A stretch of 64,000 nt of DNA, taken from the NCBI GenBank assembly GCA_018715595.1, contig DVLI01000007.1:1-64000 (forward strand). The letters are read 5' to 3'. Below are positions 8,432 through 44,890 of the stretch, one piece after another; the first letter of the stretch is position 1; each line of letters starts with the position of its first letter. The position numbers and the translations under genes were made by a program. The DNA is from Candidatus Caccoplasma merdavium. Lineage in GTDB: Bacteria > Bacteroidota > Bacteroidia > Bacteroidales > UBA11471. Below the pieces are notes generated by a model. That model made no database searches, had not been told where the DNA came from, and worked only from the letters and a program-made list of their open reading frames with translations.

Positions 8432-9402
8432 ATATAAAGCAGCAGGTAAGCGGCGACAACCACGCAGGCTTGCCAGGGTGCGTAGCGGTTGCGGGCGTGA
8501 ATGAGATAATAGGCCGAGGCTTGCGCCGTGACGATGTGTATCCACGGCAGGAAGTCGGCCGTGCGGTCGGGGTTGAGCAGGGCAGCGGCCAGTATAAAGA
8601 GGAGCAGCAACAGCAGGAAACGGTTGCTGCGCCATATCTGTATCTTGTGGCGGGTGATGAGGTAACTGCCCGACAGGCAACAGCTCACACCGATGAGGGC
8701 GGCAATGCCATATCCCGTCAGTGCGGTCGGGTCGTCGACTTGCAACGAGTAGGGCAGGCCGGGAATATACGACACAAACTGGTCGAAGGTGTAATAGATG
8801 TGCAGGTCGAAGATGATATTTGCCACGAAAAGCAGCCATACCGGCGTAGCGATACCCAGCAGGAAGGCTGTCGCCGATTTCCAGGTCAGCTCCTGCATGT
8901 AGGCCAGTCCTGTGCCGAGGGCGACAATCATTGCGGCTGCCGGCGGCCAAAGCAAGGTGCAGGCCGTTGTGAGCAGCCCTATGCCATAGGCGGCTTCGCG
9001 CCCCTCTTTCTGGTAAGAGGTAAAGAGCAGGTAGAGCCACACGACGAGCAGCGGCGACAGGAGCAAGGCGGTATTGAGACGGTCGGCAAAAGCAGGGTTG
9101 CAGAGGTTGAGAAACAGCAGGGTGGTGGCGGGAAGCCAAGTGCGCCGCTGCATGAGGTTGCAGGTGTTGTTGAGGTGTATGAGCAATATGCAACTCAGCA
9201 GCGTGGCCGCGCTGTGCAGGAGATAGATAATGACCCGCGACTGCCACAGCGGCGTGTCGGCCGGCAGGGTACCGACGACCGATCTGTCGGGCTCCCGCAT
9301 CACGAGGGCTACCAGTGACAACAGCCACACCGTGCCCCAGGTGATGGGGACGGTGCGACGGCTGTCGATGGCAGAAAGGAGTTTCTCGGTCGATAAGGTC
9401 AT
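8419..9402 (-). CDS. Polytopic membrane protein of unknown function
   Basis: The 327-residue protein is almost entirely hydrophobic, with about 8-9 predicted membrane segments between residues 20 and 325 and short polar loops (RRTVPITWG, REPDRSVVG, HIYYTFDQFVSY). The general layout recalls the DUF6427-type membrane proteins of Bacteroidota and perhaps glycosyltransferase-like membrane cores, but I cannot place it firmly. It lies between purD (24 bases upstream) and the YqaA-type gene, which it overlaps by 13 bases, all on the minus strand, so the three are probably co-transcribed. Confidence 0.75.
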   Translation of the reverse strand: MTLSTEKLLSAIDSRRTVPITWGTVWLLSLVALVMREPDRSVVGTLPADTPLWQSRVIIYLLHSAATLLSCILLIHLNNTCNLMQRRTWLPATTLLFLNLCNPAFADRLNTALLLSPLLVVWLYLLFTSYQKEGREAAYGIGLLTTACTLLWPPAAAMIVALGTGLAYMQELTWKSATAFLLGIATPVWLLFVANIIFDLHIYYTFDQFVSYIPGLPYSLQVDDPTALTGYGIAALIGVSCCLSGSYLITRHKIQIWRSNRFLLLLLLFILAAALLNPDRTADFLPWIHIVTAQASAYYLIHARNRYAPWQACVVVAAYLLLYIWNF

Positions 9403-9425
9403 GAGTGCAACCCGGTGAGTCGTGG

Positions 9426-10694
9426 TTAGAGGTCGAATCCGATGTCGGAACGGAAATATTTCTTCTCGAAATGGATTTTCGAGGCGTTGGCAAACGAGCG
9501 TTGCAGGGCATCGTCCTTGTCTTTTCCGTAGGAGCTGACGGCGATGACGCGGCCGCCGTTGGTGACGATGTGACCCTCTTTCTCGGCCGTTCCGGCGTGG
9601 AACACGATGCTGTCGGTCACGTCGTCGATGCCGGTGATGACCTTTCCTTTCTCATAGGCTCCGGGGTATCCGCCCGATACCAGCATCACGGTGACGGCCG
9701 AGCGCGGGTCGACGTCGAGCACGCGACGGTCGAGGTCGCCTTGGGCCACGCCTTCGAGCAGTTCCACGAGGTCGCTTTTGATGCGCAGCATGACGGCTTC
9801 GGTCTCGGGGTCGCCCATGCGCACGTTGTATTCGATGACCATCGGTTCGTTTTTCACGTTGATGAGGCCGAGGAAGATAAATCCCTTGTAGTCGATACCC
9901 TCCTCCTTCAATCCGTTGATGGTGGGCACGACGATGCGCTCTTCGACCTTCTTCATGAAAGTGGCGTCGGCAAACGGTACGGGCGATACGGCACCCATGC
10001 CGCCGGTGTTGAGGCCGGTGTCACCCTCGCCGATGCGTTTGTAGTCTTTGGCTTCGGGCAGGATTTTATAGCTCTTGCCGTCGGTGAGGACGAAGACCGA
10101 ACATTCGATACCCGAGAGGAACTCCTCGATGACGACCGTGCGGCTGGCTTCGCCGAACATGCCCGAGAGCATCTCTTTGAGCTCGGCCTTGGCCTCTTCG
10201 AGCGTGGGGAGTATGAGCACCCCTTTTCCGGCGGCGAGGCCGTCGGCTTTGAGCACATAGGGGGCTTCGAGGGTTTCGAGGAAGGCATAGGCTTTGTCGA
10301 TGTTCTCGGCGGTGAAGCTCTCATAACGGGCGGTGGGTATGTGGTGGCGCATCATGAAGGCTTTGGCAAAGTCTTTGCTCCCTTCGAGGCGGGCTCCCGA
10401 GGCCGAGGGGCCGATGACGGGTATCGAGGCCAGTTGCGCGTCGTTCTTGAAGAAGTCATAGACTCCTTTCACGAGCGGATCTTCGGGCCCTACCACCACC
10501 ATGTCGATGGCGTGGGCGAGTGCAAACTCTTTGAGGGCCGGGAAGTCGGTGGCCGAGAGAGCGACGTTCTTCCCGATGCGGGCGGTTCCGGCGTTGCCCG
10601 GGGCGATGTATAGATTCTCCACGCGGGGACTTTGGGCTATTTTCCATGCCAAGGCGTTTTCGCGGCCGCCTGAGCCTAATAACAGAATATTCAT
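9426..10694 (-). CDS. purD: Phosphoribosylamine-glycine ligase (GAR synthetase)
   Basis: PurD joins phosphoribosylamine to glycine using ATP, the second step of de novo purine synthesis. The 422-residue protein has the expected length and domain order: N-terminal domain starting [21 protein letters not shown]-grasp core with [16 protein letters not shown] near residue 140, the [15 protein letters not shown] loop, the metal-binding [13 protein letters not shown] segment, and the C-terminal domain. It starts 19 bases downstream of the S9 peptidase stop, so it is likely in one transcript with that gene although the functions are unrelated. Confidence 0.97.
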
Positions 10695-36708: not shown

Positions 36709-36737
36709 AAAAAAGCGTTGAGGATTTCCTCAACGCT
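36709..36737 (-). terminator. Intrinsic terminator of the tRNA-Glu/rpsT operon
   Basis: AGCGTTGAGGA (36714-36724) pairs perfectly with TCCTCAACGCT (36727-36737) and on the minus strand is followed by TTTTTTCG. It starts 4 bases beyond the 3' end of the second tRNA-Glu. Confidence 0.88.
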
Positions 36738-36740
36738 GGG

Positions 36741-36812
36741 TAGCCCATAGGGGAATCGAACCCCTCTTTCAAGAATGAAAATCTTGCGTCCTAGCCGATA
36801 GACGAATGGGCC
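36741..36812 (-). tRNA. tRNA-Glu (TTC), downstream copy
   Basis: The 72-base minus-strand sequence folds as a cloverleaf: acceptor GGCCCAT with ATGGGCT, anticodon stem CAAGA/TCTTG and loop TTTTCAT giving anticodon TTC (glutamate GAA), T-arm with GGTTCGATTCC. CCA is not encoded. It is identical to the copy at 37165-37236 and lies 62 bases after rpsT. Confidence 0.96.
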
Positions 36813-36874
36813 ATGATTACCGCCTCGGTGCGAAGCGGCCGGCGTGCAACCTCACCACGGAGGTGCCTGCGGTA

Positions 36875-37126: not shown

Positions 37127-37164
37127 TCAATAAATCTCCTTTAATTTTTTTTGTTTCTGATTGG

Positions 37165-37236
37165 TAGCCCATAGGGGAATCGAACCCCTCTTTCAAGAAT
37201 GAAAATCTTGCGTCCTAGCCGATAGACGAATGGGCC
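37165..37236 (-). tRNA. tRNA-Glu (TTC), upstream copy
   Basis: Sequence identical over 72 bases to the tRNA at 36741-36812, with anticodon TTC. It is the first gene of the unit, 38 bases upstream of rpsT and about 50 bases downstream of the promoter at 37290-37320. Confidence 0.96.
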
Positions 37237-38241: not shown

Positions 38242-38273
38242 TTTGGAAAAGTATGTCAAAAGTCCTACCTTTG
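38242..38273 (+). promoter_or_regulatory. Promoter of tRNA-Arg
   Basis: TTTG (38242-38245), a 20-base spacer and TACCTTTG (38266-38273) match the Bacteroidota promoter exactly. The tRNA begins at 38291. Confidence 0.82.
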
Positions 38274-38367: not shown

Positions 38368-38403
38368 TTGCCTGCCGATGCGGCGTGTCGGCAGGCAATT
38401 TTA
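38368..38403 (+). terminator. Intrinsic terminator of tRNA-Arg
   Basis: TTGCCTGCCGA (38368-38378) pairs with TCGGCAGGCAA (38388-38398), followed by TTTTATT. It separates the tRNA from the CRISPR array, so the array is unlikely to be read through from the tRNA promoter. Confidence 0.88.
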
Positions 38404-38473: not shown

Positions 38474-38520
38474 TCGACCATGCAATAAAGACTTCGTATC
38501 ATTGTTCTACAGAATGCAGC
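38474..38520 (+). repeat. Degenerate terminal CRISPR repeat
   Basis: Only the 3' 26 bases resemble the repeat (CGTATCATTGTTCTACAGAA and on to GCAGC), with about four substitutions; the first 20 bases no longer match. The internal -7 box is changed from TATCTTTG to TATCATTG and the -33-like GTTG is lost. This marks the oldest end of the array. Confidence 0.8.
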
Positions 38521-38550: not shown

Positions 38551-39902
38551 GTTGTAAATTGCTTTCAAATTTATATCTTTGTTCTACCGAATACAGCAGA
38601 CTTTGCATCAGCCTTTAATGATTCAGGTTGTAAATTGCTTTCAAAATTGTATCTTTGTTCTACCGAATACAGCACAATAAGGCGCGGAAGTCGTACACGC
38701 TTAGTTGTAAATTGCTTTCAAAATTGTATCTTTGTTCTACCGAATACAGCCGCCGGGGTGCTCAAAGGCTATACCCTGCAGTTGTAAATTGCTTTCAAAA
38801 TTGTATCTTTGTTCTACCGAATACAGCCGGTGATAGTTTCTTTATTCGTCGTATGTCGTTGTAAATTGCTTTCAAAATTGTATCTTTGTTCTACCGAATA
38901 CAGCTCATGGCTCTACCACCTCTACGACGAGAAGTTGTAAATTGCTTTCAAAATTGTATCTTTGTTCTACCGAATACAGCTTCGTTGTAAGGGATGCAAT
39001 ATCTGTTTAAGTTGTAAATTGCTTTCAAAATTGTATCTTTGTTCTACCGAATACAGCTTCCGAAGTTTTCCGAGTTGGCAAATTTGCGTTGTAAATTGCT
39101 TTCAAAATTGTATCTTTGTTCTACCGAATACAGCAAGTGAACGAATCGATGAGACTGTCTTTACGTTGTAAATTGCTTTCAAAATTGTATCTTTGTTCTA
39201 CCGAATACAGCGAATTGTAAAAGCTTGCGCTTATGTGAAAGTTGTAAATTGCTTTCAAAATTGTATCTTTGTTCTACCGAATACAGCCGGAGGAAGGTGG
39301 CGAGCGCACCTCCCGTGTTGTAAATTGCTTTCAAAATTGTATCTTTGTTCTACCGAATACAGCACAGCCATTGGAAAGACGAACAGGCTCTGCGTTGTAA
39401 ATTGCTTTCAAAATTGTATCTTTGTTCTACCGAATACAGCGTTGATAACGCTCGAAGCAATACGGAGTATGTTGTAAATTGCTTTCAAAATTGTATCTTT
39501 GTTCTACCGAATACAGCTAGTACATATTACGAAGTGCCTGGGCACGCGTTGTAAATTGCTTTCAAAATTGTATCTTTGTTCTACCGAATACAGCGGTGGC
39601 AGTTCTGGTTCTGCTTCGTCAGGTGTTGTAAATTGCTTTCAAAATTGTATCTTTGTTCTACCGAATACAGCAAACGTTGACGTTGTTGAGCGGCAGAGTT
39701 AGTTGTAAATTGCTTTCAAAATTGTATCTTTGTTCTACCGAATACAGCGAAGACATACTTATCAGCATCTTCAATTTTGTTGTAAATTGCTTTCAAAATT
39801 GTATCTTTGTTCTACCGAATACAGCTTATTCAGGATAATAATGGTAATTACGGAAGTTGTAAATTGCTTTCAAAATTGTATCTTTGTTCTACCGAATACA
39901 GC
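38551..39902 (+). promoter_or_regulatory. Promoter-like element inside each CRISPR repeat
   Basis: In every full repeat, GTTG at repeat positions 1-4, a 19-base spacer and TATCTTTG at positions 24-31 match the Bacteroidota promoter (TTTG-N19-21-TAnnTTTG) apart from one base in the -33 box. The same form, with the same spacing, drives at least six other genes in this window. Transcription would start near repeat position 37-38 and run through the next spacer and repeat. In Neisseria type II-C systems crRNAs are made in this way from repeat-embedded promoters; here it is an inference. Confidence 0.65.
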
Positions 39903-39969
39903 TCGATGTGTGTAGTGCGCTATTTCCCAGCTGTTTACGGGGAGATTTAGAAAAGAAAAAGTATTCGAT
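39903..39969. other. Leader-like flank of the CRISPR array
   Basis: A short 67-base non-coding stretch between the last perfect repeat and the terminator, ending in an A-rich run (AGAAAAGAAAAAG). By position next to the invariant repeats and cas2 it should be the adaptation end. No promoter is seen in it. Confidence 0.45.
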
Positions 39970-40008
39970 AAAAAGGCACCTTCCTTGCAAGGAAGGTGCC
40001 TTTTTGGT
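39970..40008. terminator. Bidirectional terminator between CRISPR array and cas2
   Basis: A near-perfect palindrome at 39970-40005 (AAAAAGGCACCTTCC and its complement around TTGCAA) has A-run on the left and T-run on the right. It would stop array transcription on the plus strand and cas9-cas1-cas2 transcription on the minus strand. Confidence 0.9.
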
Positions 40009-40010
40009 TT

Positions 40011-41277
<1,267 letters not shown>

Positions 41278-41281
<4 letters not shown>

Positions 41282-44200
41282 GCTTCGTCGATTTCGCCGA
41301 TGGCGGAGATGCGCACTTTGTGGGGATTCTGCGTATATAAAGCACGTATACTTCGTATACGTATTAATTTTCCCATTTGTTGAGACAATTTTTTGTTCCC
41401 ATCCCCATTGTATTTATCGTCGACAGAGGTTTCGATATGAAGGCGAAAATTGTAATCGTTTGTTGCAATATTTTGTACCCGGTAGAGGTAGCGGCTCAGC
41501 AGGGCATGGTCACGGTTTTCCATGGCGTCGGCATAGAGATCGTCGGGCATACCGAGTATAAACATTTCGTTTTGTTGCATCGAGAGTTGCAGTTGCCAGG
41601 TGGCGTCGGGCAGCTGTTGCATGAACTCCTCCGACAGCCCGTCGGGCAGTGAATCCCACACGGCATCGGGGTGTTCGATGACGACAGGCAGCCGATGTAT
41701 CTTGCGCTCGACAGCGTGCCAGAAGGTAACGACATGCTCGTGCAGGTTGCCGTCGCGGTCGGCATAGATGGCGATGTGGTGGTTGTTGCCCGGCTTGACG
41801 AAACCGATGGCCTCTCCCGACGCATTGTATCGTACCGGGGCGACGGCTTTGAGGCCGGTAAAGCAGCGCACGGTGCGGATAGGAAATCCGTTGGCCGTGT
41901 AGACGGGGGTGGCGAAGGCTTTCTTGGCGTTGCCTCCATACTCGTCGAGTCGTTGTTGCAGGAGCCGCCGTATGCCGGCGTCGACCACGCTGCCCACCGT
42001 TTTGGCGTCGATGCCTTCGACGGGATATTTAAAGACGTATTCTTCGCGGAAGGAGACCTTCCCTTTTTTGTTTTTGGTGTATTGTGATATTTTCCCGTAG
42101 ATGCTTTGTTCGCTCAGGGCTCCGCGGGGCACGACGATGCCTTCTTGGACCAAGATGCGCCGGCCTCCGCGGTAGATGTAGCGTTTCCCGGGGGTAGCTA
42201 CCCGTTTGCCGGCTTTGAACGAGACGAGTATTTTCGCGACGGCGGCAGAGACTTCGGCATGGGAGAAGTGGGGTTGTTGCTGTATGTAGCGTTCGAGCGA
42301 CAGGTTCTCGTCTTTGTGAGAGGCAAGGGTGTTGATGCGTTGTATGTATCCCTGGCGGGTGCAGGCCACGGCCAGGGCGTCGATGGCGTGGTGCCGGTGG
42401 TCGAGCCGCTTGGTCCAATCTTTGATGCACTCCGTAGGGCGGTTGTTGATGGTGCGCATTTCGGTAAGGTTACCGGCGCGGTATCGCTCTATGTTGAGGT
42501 CGTGCAAGACGGTGTCCCACCCCCATACCCGACGCAGGAAGGCGGTTACCGAGCCGCTGGTGGCATAGGCATGGTGGCATATCTCGTGCAGCATGGCAAG
42601 GGCCTTGCGCGAAATGTATTGGCTCTCGCGCATCTGTCGGTTGAGAAAGTCTTGCGGAATTTCCGCTTCGGGCATGAGTAGATACTTGTATTTATCTTTG
42701 GAGATCTCCTGTTTTTCAAGCATCTCTTTTATGCGCGAAAGATAGTCTTGGAACTGGTTGTCGGGCAGACTGCTCATGTAGTCGTAGGCGGTGCGGTTGT
42801 TTTTCACCTGGTTGCAGGCACGGCAGGCGCACACTTTGTTGTTGAAACTGTCGTCGAAGTAGAGCGAGCGGGGAATGATGTGTTCGACCTCGGTGTCGTA
42901 GCCCGACAGAAAGGCTTTCAGGCTGATGTCTTTACCGCAGTAGATGCATCGGTGATGGCTCTCCTCGTATAGCTGGTATTTCTGTATGCCGGCACGAGTG
43001 GGGGTTACTCCCTCCTCGATGATTCGCTGTGCGGCTTTTTCGTTCTCTTTTTGGCGATTCAGAATGTTTTTGTAAGTTTTTTCCCGTTTTTCCCGGCTCT
43101 GTTGCAGTTCCCGAGCCAGCTCTACGCGTATCTCGTCGAAAGGCCCGTATCGGTCGACGAGGGCATTGACGACGTTGACCATCTGGTTGAGAATTTTCTC
43201 GACGATGGGCTGTCGCAGTTCGCCTTTGGCCAGAGGGGTCAGATGCGTTGCTAACTCCCGGGTCAGGTTCTCTTCGCGGGTGAGCGACTGGCTGTGATTG
43301 TAGCCGGCCATGAAACAGGCATCGGAGTAGACATAGCCTTGCCGCAGGTAGGGCAGTATGCGCCGCATGGCGATGCTCGACAGGTTGCCGTAGCCGGCTT
43401 TGGTGAAATCGAGTTTTATCAGTTCTCCGCGTATGGCGGCGTCGTCGATGTGAAATTTCTTTTCCAAGATGCGGTCGAGGGTATCGATGTCGCTCACCGA
43501 GTAGAGCGTGTGCCAAAGCTGGTACAGGGGCTCTTGCTCGAAGGCCGGGTCGACGACGAGTTGCGAGGCTATTTCGCCGGTGTCGGGGTCGGCCATCTCT
43601 ACCGTGCGGATATGCAGGTCGAAGCGCAGCAATGCTTCGGCATCGGGGTGGGATTTTAGAATCTTTTGCAGGGCGACAACCGTGGTGTTGCCTTGCAGGC
43701 CGGCCTTCATCGACTCGCCGGCCCACCAGCCGTCGCGTTTGGTGATGCCCAGTATCTTTTGCAGGTCGGTGAGTTTCAACTTCTCGTTGTTGTTCATGTG
43801 CGAGAAGAGGGCTTGTCGCTGTGCCGGGGTTATTTCCAGGGTTTCCCGTCCGCGTTGCAGGGTGAGGTGGTTGATGCTCTCCCATATCTTGCAGATCTGG
43901 AAGAGCGGCGAACTTTTAGGGGCGACTTTTACCGGTCGGGATTTTGTCGAGCCGTCGGGCAATGTATAGACCATCTGTGCCAGGGTGCATTTGCCCACCA
44001 GGTGCTTGCACGATTTCAGGGGACGCTGGTAATAGATGATGCGGTTGCGCAGGTTGTCGATGTGCTCGTCGGTGAGCGTGTCGTGGTAGCGGCGCTGGCA
44101 GGCCATGATGCGGTCAAACTCTTCGATGTAGGCTTGTCGGGGATAGACCCTGTCTTTGCAGCGATAAGTGGGGTCGGCTTTCAGTTCGGCGTGGAATTTC

Positions 44201-44697
44201 TGTCCGATGGTGAGGCCGCACTCCTGCAACTCTTTGTAGCGGTCGCTCACGGCCGAGAGATATGCCGAACTTTTTTTGTCCTGAAAATCGGCCTTCCCCG
44301 ATTTGTATCCGCGCTTTTGGTTGAGGTGGTAGAGCACCCTCCCCAATTCGGGGAGGCTTATCTCTTCGGTTGCCGCTTTGGCCCGTAGAGCCCACAGCTC
44401 CTGTTGAGGCAGCTTTATGAGTGTTTCGTCGGGTGTCATGCCCAACTGGTGAAGATATTGAGTGAGGGCCTTCCGGCGCAACTGATGGCGGTCGTATCCC
44501 TTCCTTTGGGTGCGGTTTGCCGTTCGGTCGGCATTCTTGGTAATGCTTTTCCCTTGGGTAAATTGGGTGGCGTCGTCGACCGACAGGGGTATGATGCGGG
44601 AGCCTAATCCCAAAATGACACGGTTGTTTTCGTCTTCTTTGATAACGGCCCACCCGATACTGCCTGAGCCAAGATCCAGTCCTAATATGTTTTTCAT
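41278..44697 (-). CDS. cas9: Type II-C Cas9 endonuclease (compact, 1139 aa)
   Basis: Cas9 cuts DNA matched by a crRNA paired with tracrRNA. The catalytic residues are intact: RuvC-I Asp8 in ILGLDLGSGSIGWAV, RuvC-II Glu526 in IRVELARELQQ, HNH His606 in VEHIIPRS, and RuvC-III His769 and Asp773 in HHAIDALAVA. The HNH domain carries a zinc knuckle (CIYC and CRAC). An Arg-rich bridge helix lies near residues 58-80. The RuvC-III to C-terminus segment (774-1139) holds the PAM-interacting region. At 1139 residues it is shorter than the roughly 1,400-residue Cas9 known from Bacteroides fragilis. Its promoter at 44721-44751 faces away from the tracrRNA gene. Confidence 0.98.
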
Positions 44698-44720: not shown

Positions 44721-44751
44721 CAAATATACGAAGAATAGCATAAAATGCAAA
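44721..44751 (-). promoter_or_regulatory. Promoter of the cas9-cas1-cas2 operon
   Basis: On the minus strand TTTG (44751-44748), a 19-base spacer and TATATTTG (44728-44721) form a full Bacteroidota promoter. The cas9 ATG at 44697 is about 18 bases past the predicted transcription start. Confidence 0.8.
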
Positions 44752-44767: not shown

Positions 44768-44799
44768 TTTGGAAATATAAATTAATATACCTATATTTG
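44768..44799 (+). promoter_or_regulatory. Promoter of the tracrRNA
   Basis: TTTG (44768-44771), a 20-base spacer and TATATTTG (44792-44799) form a full promoter pointing away from cas9. Its -33 box is 16 bases from that of the cas9 promoter. Transcription should start at about 44804-44806, at the anti-repeat. Confidence 0.82.
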
Positions 44800-44803
44800 A
44801 AAA

Positions 44804-44890
44804 CAATTTTGAAGCAATTCACAATAAGGATTATTCCGTTGTGAAAACATTCTGAGTGGGGGCGCTGCTTGCAGTGTCCCTCGCTTTTTA
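44804..44890 (+). ncRNA. tracrRNA of the type II-C system
   Basis: The anti-repeat at 44804-44825 (CAATTTTGAAGCAATTCACA and on) is complementary to the first 23 bases of the CRISPR repeat with one bulge, one A-C mismatch and one terminal wobble. It is followed by AAGGATTATTCC (a small hairpin, 44826-44837), GTTGTGAAAACATT, and a GC-rich hairpin at about 44855-44882 that runs into CGCTTTTTATT. This matches the layout of known Bacteroidota tracrRNAs. It lies directly upstream of cas9 on the opposite strand. No other anti-repeat was found in the window. Confidence 0.9.

What the first reader, a model, noticed from the sequence alone, without database searches (positions are those of the whole stretch)
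38551..39902. Every CRISPR repeat carries a Bacteroidota-type promoter
Each full 47-base repeat contains GTTG (positions 1-4), a 19-base gap, and TATCTTTG (positions 24-31). This equals the promoter form seen in front of HU, sdhC, tRNA-Glu, tRNA-Arg, tRNA-Leu, cas9 and the tracrRNA in this same window (TTTG-N19-20-TAnnTTTG), with a single mismatch in the -33 box. Transcription would begin about ten bases before each spacer, giving one short spacer-repeat RNA per unit. Repeat-embedded promoters of a different (sigma70-type) sequence are known from Neisseria type II-C arrays; the use of the phylum-specific promoter inside the repeat would be a parallel solution. Conservation of TATCTTTG may reflect promoter function as well as RNA function.
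Basis: partly seen in the sequence, partly recalled or inferred. Interest (0 to 1): 0.75.

Follow-up and report, generated by a model that had tools for sequence, protein, structure and literature searches.

The report
Promoter inside each CRISPR-Cas9 repeat
Each repeat of this gut bacterium's CRISPR-Cas9 immune memory appears to carry its own transcription start signal, written in the special promoter code of the Bacteroidota, so every stored virus memory could be switched on by itself; the trick is known from other phyla but this version of it had not been described.

Summary
All 18 repeats of this type II-C array (38551-39902) read GTTG-N19-TATCTTTG. The -7 part is very probably a real sigma-A promoter element. 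It lies at repeat positions 24-31, essentially beyond the crRNA:tracrRNA duplex (positions 2-24). Of 32 distinct long Bacteroidales repeats, 28 carry an exact TAnnTTTG in the expected place (0.14 expected). Its six core columns are as conserved as the tracrRNA-pairing half, while the two 'nn' columns and the rest of the 3' half vary. The array is insulated from the upstream tRNA by a terminator, grows at its 3' (cas2) end, and has no promoter of this type on either side. The -33 part is much weaker: GTTG is fixed by tracrRNA pairing, is only mildly enriched in the genome, and is lost in most degenerate first repeats. Repeat-embedded promoters are known for II-C arrays of Campylobacter and Neisseria; for Flavobacterium only a 'TTG' -33 was proposed. 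The Bacteroidota -7 element, and its apparent move to a second position in lineages that lost the first (10 of 26 clusters against 1.5 expected), seem undescribed. No RNA data were available. New variant of a known kind.

The parts
38551..39902 (+). type II-C CRISPR array, 18 repeats of 47 nt, spacers of 29-30 nt; crRNA sense is the + strand
38574..38581 (+). -7 box TATCTTTG of the first repeat; the same box recurs in all 18 repeats (last at 39879-39886)
38551..38554 (+). GTTG, candidate -33 element of the first repeat (repeated in all copies; weak evidence)
38497..38520 (+). degenerate remnant of an older repeat (matches repeat positions 24-47 with 3 mismatches; box reads TATCATTG); marks the old end of the array
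   Evidence: sequence
38368..38398 (+). intrinsic terminator after tRNA-Arg, insulating the array from the tRNA promoter at 38242-38273
39903..39969 (.). leader (acquisition end), almost identical in a relative (L039) whose adjacent spacers all differ
39970..40005. 15-bp inverted repeat with A and T tracts, probable bidirectional terminator between array and cas2 (read by eye; not listed by the terminator scan)
   Evidence: sequence
40011..40355 (-). cas2
40352..41281 (-). cas1 (type II, TIGR03639)
41278..44697 (-). cas9 (TIGR01865, 1139 aa)
44721..44751 (-). cas9 promoter TTTG-N19-TATATTTG
44768..44799 (+). tracrRNA promoter TTTG-N20-TATATTTG
44803..44824 (+). anti-repeat, pairs with repeat positions 2-24; coincides with the predicted tracrRNA 5' end

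Best explanation
Each repeat carries a sigma-A promoter of the Bacteroidota kind whose decisive part is the -7 box TAnnTTTG at repeat positions 24-31. RNA polymerase would start at about repeat position 36, giving a precursor of about 12 nt of repeat, the spacer and the next repeat, and running on to the terminator at 39970-40005. The tracrRNA pairs with positions 2-24 of the following repeat and RNase III trims the precursor to one guide. This lets new spacers, added at the 3' end beside cas2, be transcribed without any leader promoter. Shown by sequence: the box, its conservation, its position relative to the duplex, the array polarity, and the lack of an external promoter of this type. Inferred: that the box is used, the start site, and the processing.
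For: (1) Exact TAnnTTTG in the expected place in 28 of 32 distinct long Bacteroidales repeats, 14 of 18 clusters at 85% (0.14 and 0.08 expected). (2) In 3'-anchored columns, not chosen by the motif, mean pairwise difference is 0.174 for the box core, 0.394 for 'nn', 0.508 for other 3'-half columns and 0.182 for positions 1-20; six random 3'-half columns are as conserved with P about 1e-5 (1.3e-4 on clusters). (3) The box lies essentially beyond the anti-repeat duplex (2-24), which itself coincides with the predicted tracrRNA start. (4) Among 93 complete arrays the first repeat is the more degenerate one in 53, the last in 1; only 4 have TTG-N18-21-TAnnTTTG within 250 nt upstream (one of these is a repeat remnant) and none has an antisense one in the leader. 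(5) A terminator insulates the array from tRNA-Arg. (6) The own genome uses this promoter code. (7) RNA-seq in F. columnare shows a few reads from within the II-C array towards the leader (PMC8092290), and F. psychrophilum arrays are transcribed (PMC10309648).
Against: No start site has been mapped in this or a near relative. The -33 match is GTTG, constrained by tracrRNA pairing, and is lost in most degenerate first repeats. In those first repeats the stretch after the box is nearly as intact as the box (2.1% against 0.8% changed), so their 3' half is not evidence for the box alone. In most loci the anti-repeat match runs 1-3 nt into the box. Several repeats outside Bacteroidales, and the 36-nt Bacteroides-like class, lack the box. 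Related repeats share ancestry, so shuffle P values overstate independence.
Confidence: 0.8

Rival explanations
1. The TATCTTTG box is kept because Cas1-Cas2 needs an internal DNA motif in the repeat for spacer integration (a ruler or anchor), and its likeness to a promoter is coincidental.
For: CTTTGA is kept in several repeats outside Bacteroidia that lost the TA; repeat ends GTTGT and ACA are also conserved, so acquisition does constrain the repeat.
Against: It does not predict a TAnnTTTG pattern with variable nn, the lack of an external promoter of this type, or the appearance of a second TAnnTTTG-like box in lineages that lost the first.
Confidence: 0.1
2. The box is conserved as RNA: tracrRNA pairing, a repeat hairpin or an RNase III site.
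For: Repeat conservation in CRISPR systems is often RNA-based; the anti-repeat match runs 1-3 nt into the box in most loci.
Against: TTTG lies beyond the duplex in nearly all loci and the predicted tracrRNA starts opposite repeat position 23-24. Four repeats fold no better than shuffles (z from -1.1 to 0.3), with the box in different structures.
Confidence: 0.05
3. A single promoter outside the array makes a long precursor; the internal boxes are weak or silent.
For: The tRNA-Arg promoter lies about 280 nt upstream on the same strand; L062, whose repeat lacks the box, has a good promoter 50 nt before its first repeat.
Against: A strong terminator follows tRNA-Arg. Only 4 of 93 complete arrays have a consensus promoter within 250 nt upstream, one of them a repeat remnant. 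Promoters of other types were not excluded.
Confidence: 0.07

Closest known systems
Campylobacter jejuni type II-C array with a promoter in each repeat (PMC3656092)
   Same: II-C architecture (cas9-cas1-cas2 only), each repeat supplies its own promoter, only the 3' end of the crRNA needs RNase III
   Different: There an extended -10 box (GGTAAAAT) ends the repeat and transcription starts at spacer base 5, shown by dRNA-seq. Here a TAnnTTTG box lies 16 nt before the end of a 47-nt repeat and the predicted start is 12 nt before the spacer.
Flavobacterium columnare and F. psychrophilum II-C arrays (PMC8092290, PMC10309648)
   Same: Same phylum, transcription from within the array towards the leader, a repeat-encoded promoter proposed
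   Different: Only a TTG 33-35 bp before the spacer was named as promoter; no -7 element in the repeat was described and no start sites were mapped.
Riemerella anatipestifer CRISPR1 (PMC5006608)
   Same: 47-nt II-C repeat beginning GTTG, same gene order
   Different: That paper reported no promoter in the repeats; the predictor it names (BDGP neural network) is a general tool, not one for the Bacteroidota consensus. Its repeat was not re-examined here.
Bacteroidota sigma-A promoter (B. thetaiotaomicron, F. psychrophilum; PMC7366714, PMC9723704)
   Same: TAnnTTTG -7 box; spacing typical for this genome
   Different: Here the -33 is GTTG instead of TTTG and the promoter is embedded in a CRISPR repeat.

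Membership tests
type II-C CRISPR-Cas | cas9, cas1, cas2 and no further cas gene recognised beside them | tested here: met
   TIGR01865, TIGR03639, TIGR01573; of the two flanking ORFs tested one is recO, the other has no NCBIfam match
type II-C CRISPR-Cas | tracrRNA with anti-repeat to the 5' half of the repeat | tested here: met
   anti-repeat 44803-44824 pairs with repeat positions 2-24
type II-C CRISPR-Cas | array transcribed towards the acquisition end; old, degenerate repeat first | tested here: met
   first repeat and an older remnant are degenerate; leader on the cas2 side conserved while adjacent spacers differ; 53 to 1 over 93 arrays. Direction of transcription itself is inferred from the anti-repeat.
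II-C array with repeat-embedded promoters (Campylobacter/Neisseria kind) | promoter element in every repeat | tested here: met
   18 of 18 repeats; conserved in relatives; sequence evidence only
II-C array with repeat-embedded promoters (Campylobacter/Neisseria kind) | mapped start site for each unit | not testable with these tools
   no RNA data
II-C array with repeat-embedded promoters (Campylobacter/Neisseria kind) | -10 hexamer at the 3' end of the repeat | tested here: not met
   box is at positions 24-31 of 47; the repeat ends AATACAGC
Bacteroidota sigma-A promoter | -7 box TAnnTTTG | tested here: met
Bacteroidota sigma-A promoter | -33 TTTG at 19-20 nt | tested here: inconclusive
   GTTG at 19 nt; GTTG version 45 against 26 control in the genome; TTG lost in 18 of 22 degenerate first repeats

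The most novel reading that the evidence does not exclude
Bacteroidota II-C repeats hold their promoter in one of two registers that borrow fixed tracrRNA-pairing letters as the -33 element: GTTG (1-4) with a -7 box at about 24-31, or TTTG (8-11) with a -7 box at about 31-39. Lineages that lost the first box acquired the second, so the promoter moved inside the repeat while promoter function was kept. Support: among 26 clusters that lost box A, 10 have box B within one mismatch (1.5 expected, P 5e-7) against 1 of 32 that kept A; TTTG at 8-11 in 19 of 26 against 12 of 32.
Probability: 0.4. Interest if true: 0.65.

Novelty: new variant of a known kind. Interest (0 to 1): 0.52.

Why it matters
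It suggests that unit-by-unit transcription of II-C arrays holds in Bacteroidota too, in the promoter language of that phylum, and it offers a possible reason why an earlier paper saw no promoter in such repeats. One short DNA stretch would then serve as tracrRNA partner, integration site and promoter at once. It also matters in practice: a Bacteroidota II-C repeat would bring its own promoter in Bacteroidota hosts but probably not in E. coli, and the predicted primary guide begins with about 12 nt of repeat.

Tried and rejected
Strand asymmetry of the motif upstream of genes: clear only in the own genome and Bacteroidales, and blurred by divergent promoters; not used as evidence elsewhere. 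Genome-wide enrichment in other lineages (sums): weak on average (ratio 1.25 in 79 Bacteroidia, 1.17 in 41 genomes of the G224 class), so a clean 'promoter code predicts repeat code' test failed. Completion of TAnnTT at the end of 36-nt repeats by TG as the first two spacer letters: 29 of 551, no enrichment. RNA hairpin around the box: none common to four repeats. Spacer matches in phage records: none. Retention of the box in degenerate first repeats looked decisive at first, but the stretch after the box is retained as well.

Full report
What is there. The window holds a type II-C CRISPR-Cas locus: cas9 (41278-44697, - strand), cas1 (40352-41281, -), cas2 (40011-40355, -), and on the opposite strand an array of 18 repeats of 47 nt with 29-30-nt spacers at 38551-39902. 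The tracrRNA is on the + strand before cas9; its anti-repeat (44803-44824) pairs with repeat positions 2-24, and its promoter TTTG-N20-TATATTTG ends at 44799. Every repeat reads GTTG-N19-TATCTTTG.

Is the likeness more than chance? In this genome TTTG-N18-21-TAnnTTTG occurs 174 times against 38 for the reversed pattern, and over 448 kb of it TTG is enriched 4.6-fold at 19-20 nt before TAnnTTTG. The seven window sites lie before the sdhC-like gene, HU, a tRNA-Glu, tRNA-Arg, cas9, the tracrRNA and tRNA-Leu. A shuffled 47-mer has the motif with probability 0.0015. The GTTG variant is only mildly enriched outside the array (45 against 26).

Comparison with relatives. II-C loci were collected from Bacteroidota, giving 122 distinct repeats in 138 deduplicated arrays. 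In 32 distinct long Bacteroidales repeats, TAnnTTTG with a gap of 17-22 nt after GTTG is exact in 28 (0.14 expected by shuffling the 3' half); among 85% clusters, 14 of 18. Other Bacteroidia: 10 of 31 exact and 23 of 31 within one mismatch (0.17 and 2.4 expected).

Shuffles do not remove shared ancestry, so columns were compared within one set of repeats. In Bacteroidales, anchoring the repeats at their 3' end without regard to the motif, mean pairwise difference is 0.18 for positions 1-20, 0.17 for the six core positions of the box, 0.39 for its two 'n' positions, and 0.51 for the other 3'-half columns before the last five. Six random columns are as conserved with P about 1e-5 (1.3e-4 on clusters). 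A conserved TA..TTTG with a looser middle, in a stretch that mostly does not pair with the tracrRNA, is what a promoter element predicts. In most loci the anti-repeat match extends 1-3 nt into the box, so pairing could add to the conservation of TA, but not of TTTG.

Why the array should need internal promoters. In 93 complete arrays the first repeat (crRNA sense) is more degenerate than the last in 53, equal in 39, less in 1: arrays grow at the 3' end, towards cas2. In the window the first repeat has two changes and an older remnant lies at 38497-38520; in a relative (L039, 94% identical Cas9) the leader is nearly identical while the eight spacers beside it are all different. Only 4 of 93 arrays have TTG-N18-21-TAnnTTTG within 250 nt upstream, one of them a repeat remnant, and none has one pointing out of the leader. 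In the window the nearest upstream promoter, that of tRNA-Arg, is followed by a strong terminator at 38368-38398. One repeat without any box (L062) has a good promoter 50 nt before its array, a single suggestive case.

The -33 element. GTTG is fixed in almost every long repeat, which tracrRNA pairing and integration already explain. In 22 degenerate first repeats TTG at 2-4 survives in 4, while the -7 core is unchanged in 21; a TTG 17-22 nt before the box is present in 9 of 22. The stretch after the box is also little changed (2.1%), so this shows that -33 is dispensable more than that -7 is under special constraint. Preferential mutation of the first repeat, clustered in a region needed for targeting, is already described (PMC12080349).

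A possible move of the promoter. Among 58 long-repeat clusters, 26 lack box A within one mismatch. Of these 10 have a TAnnTTTG-like box starting at positions 30-33, that is 18-21 nt after the TTTG at 8-11, within one mismatch (1.5 expected, P 5e-7); among the 32 that keep box A only one has it. TTTG rather than ATTG at 8-11 is commoner in the former (19 of 26 against 12 of 32, P 0.009). Many of the B boxes read GATATTTG or AATATTTG, with the first T missing, and the lineages are related, so this stays a hypothesis.

How it most likely works. From the mapped -12 to -5 position of the box in F. psychrophilum (PMC9723704) the start would be repeat position 36, an A: 12 nt of repeat, the spacer, then the next repeat. 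No terminator was recognised in the repeat itself (one search lists one weak repeat-spacer site at 38815-38832), so transcripts probably run to the inverted repeat at 39970-40005 and are cut by RNase III at the tracrRNA duplex.

What is known. Repeat-embedded promoters in II-C arrays are established by dRNA-seq in Campylobacter (PMC3656092) and cited as general for II-C (PMC12080349). For F. columnare and F. psychrophilum a repeat-encoded TTG was proposed as -33, with a few reads towards the leader (PMC8092290, PMC10309648). For Riemerella, with 47-nt repeats, promoters in the repeats were reported absent (PMC5006608). A search of the held library found no paper that describes TAnnTTTG in a CRISPR repeat; papers outside that library were not seen. 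The new part is the -7 element in the phylum's own code, its selective conservation, and the second register.

Limits.

Noticed in passing
L062 (repeats 8987-10494; promoter 50 nt before the first repeat in crRNA sense): A II-C repeat without the -7 box goes together with a TTG-N-TACCTTTG promoter 50 nt upstream of the array, as if an outside promoter had replaced the internal ones.
   Followed up: partly
L125, L138, L140, L157, L162, L163: A 36-nt repeat class (GTTGTGGTTTGATTAAAGATTAGA...GATATT) whose arrays run in the same direction as cas9 and lack the TAnnTTTG box; how they are transcribed is open.
   Followed up: partly
L127, L130, L131: Three related 36-nt repeats carry TAGATTTG, TAATTTTG and TAGTTTTG at the same place: inside the box only the two free positions of TAnnTTTG differ.
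   Followed up: no
window 36737-36813 and 37162-37236: Two tRNA-Glu (TTC) genes on the - strand with near-identical sequence lie about 350 nt apart on either side of a short ORF.
   Followed up: no
loci of the G224 class: TTG-N20-TAnnTTGG (71) and TTG-N19-GTnnTTTG (74) are strikingly over-represented outside the masked arrays, probably an unmasked repeat array.
   Followed up: no
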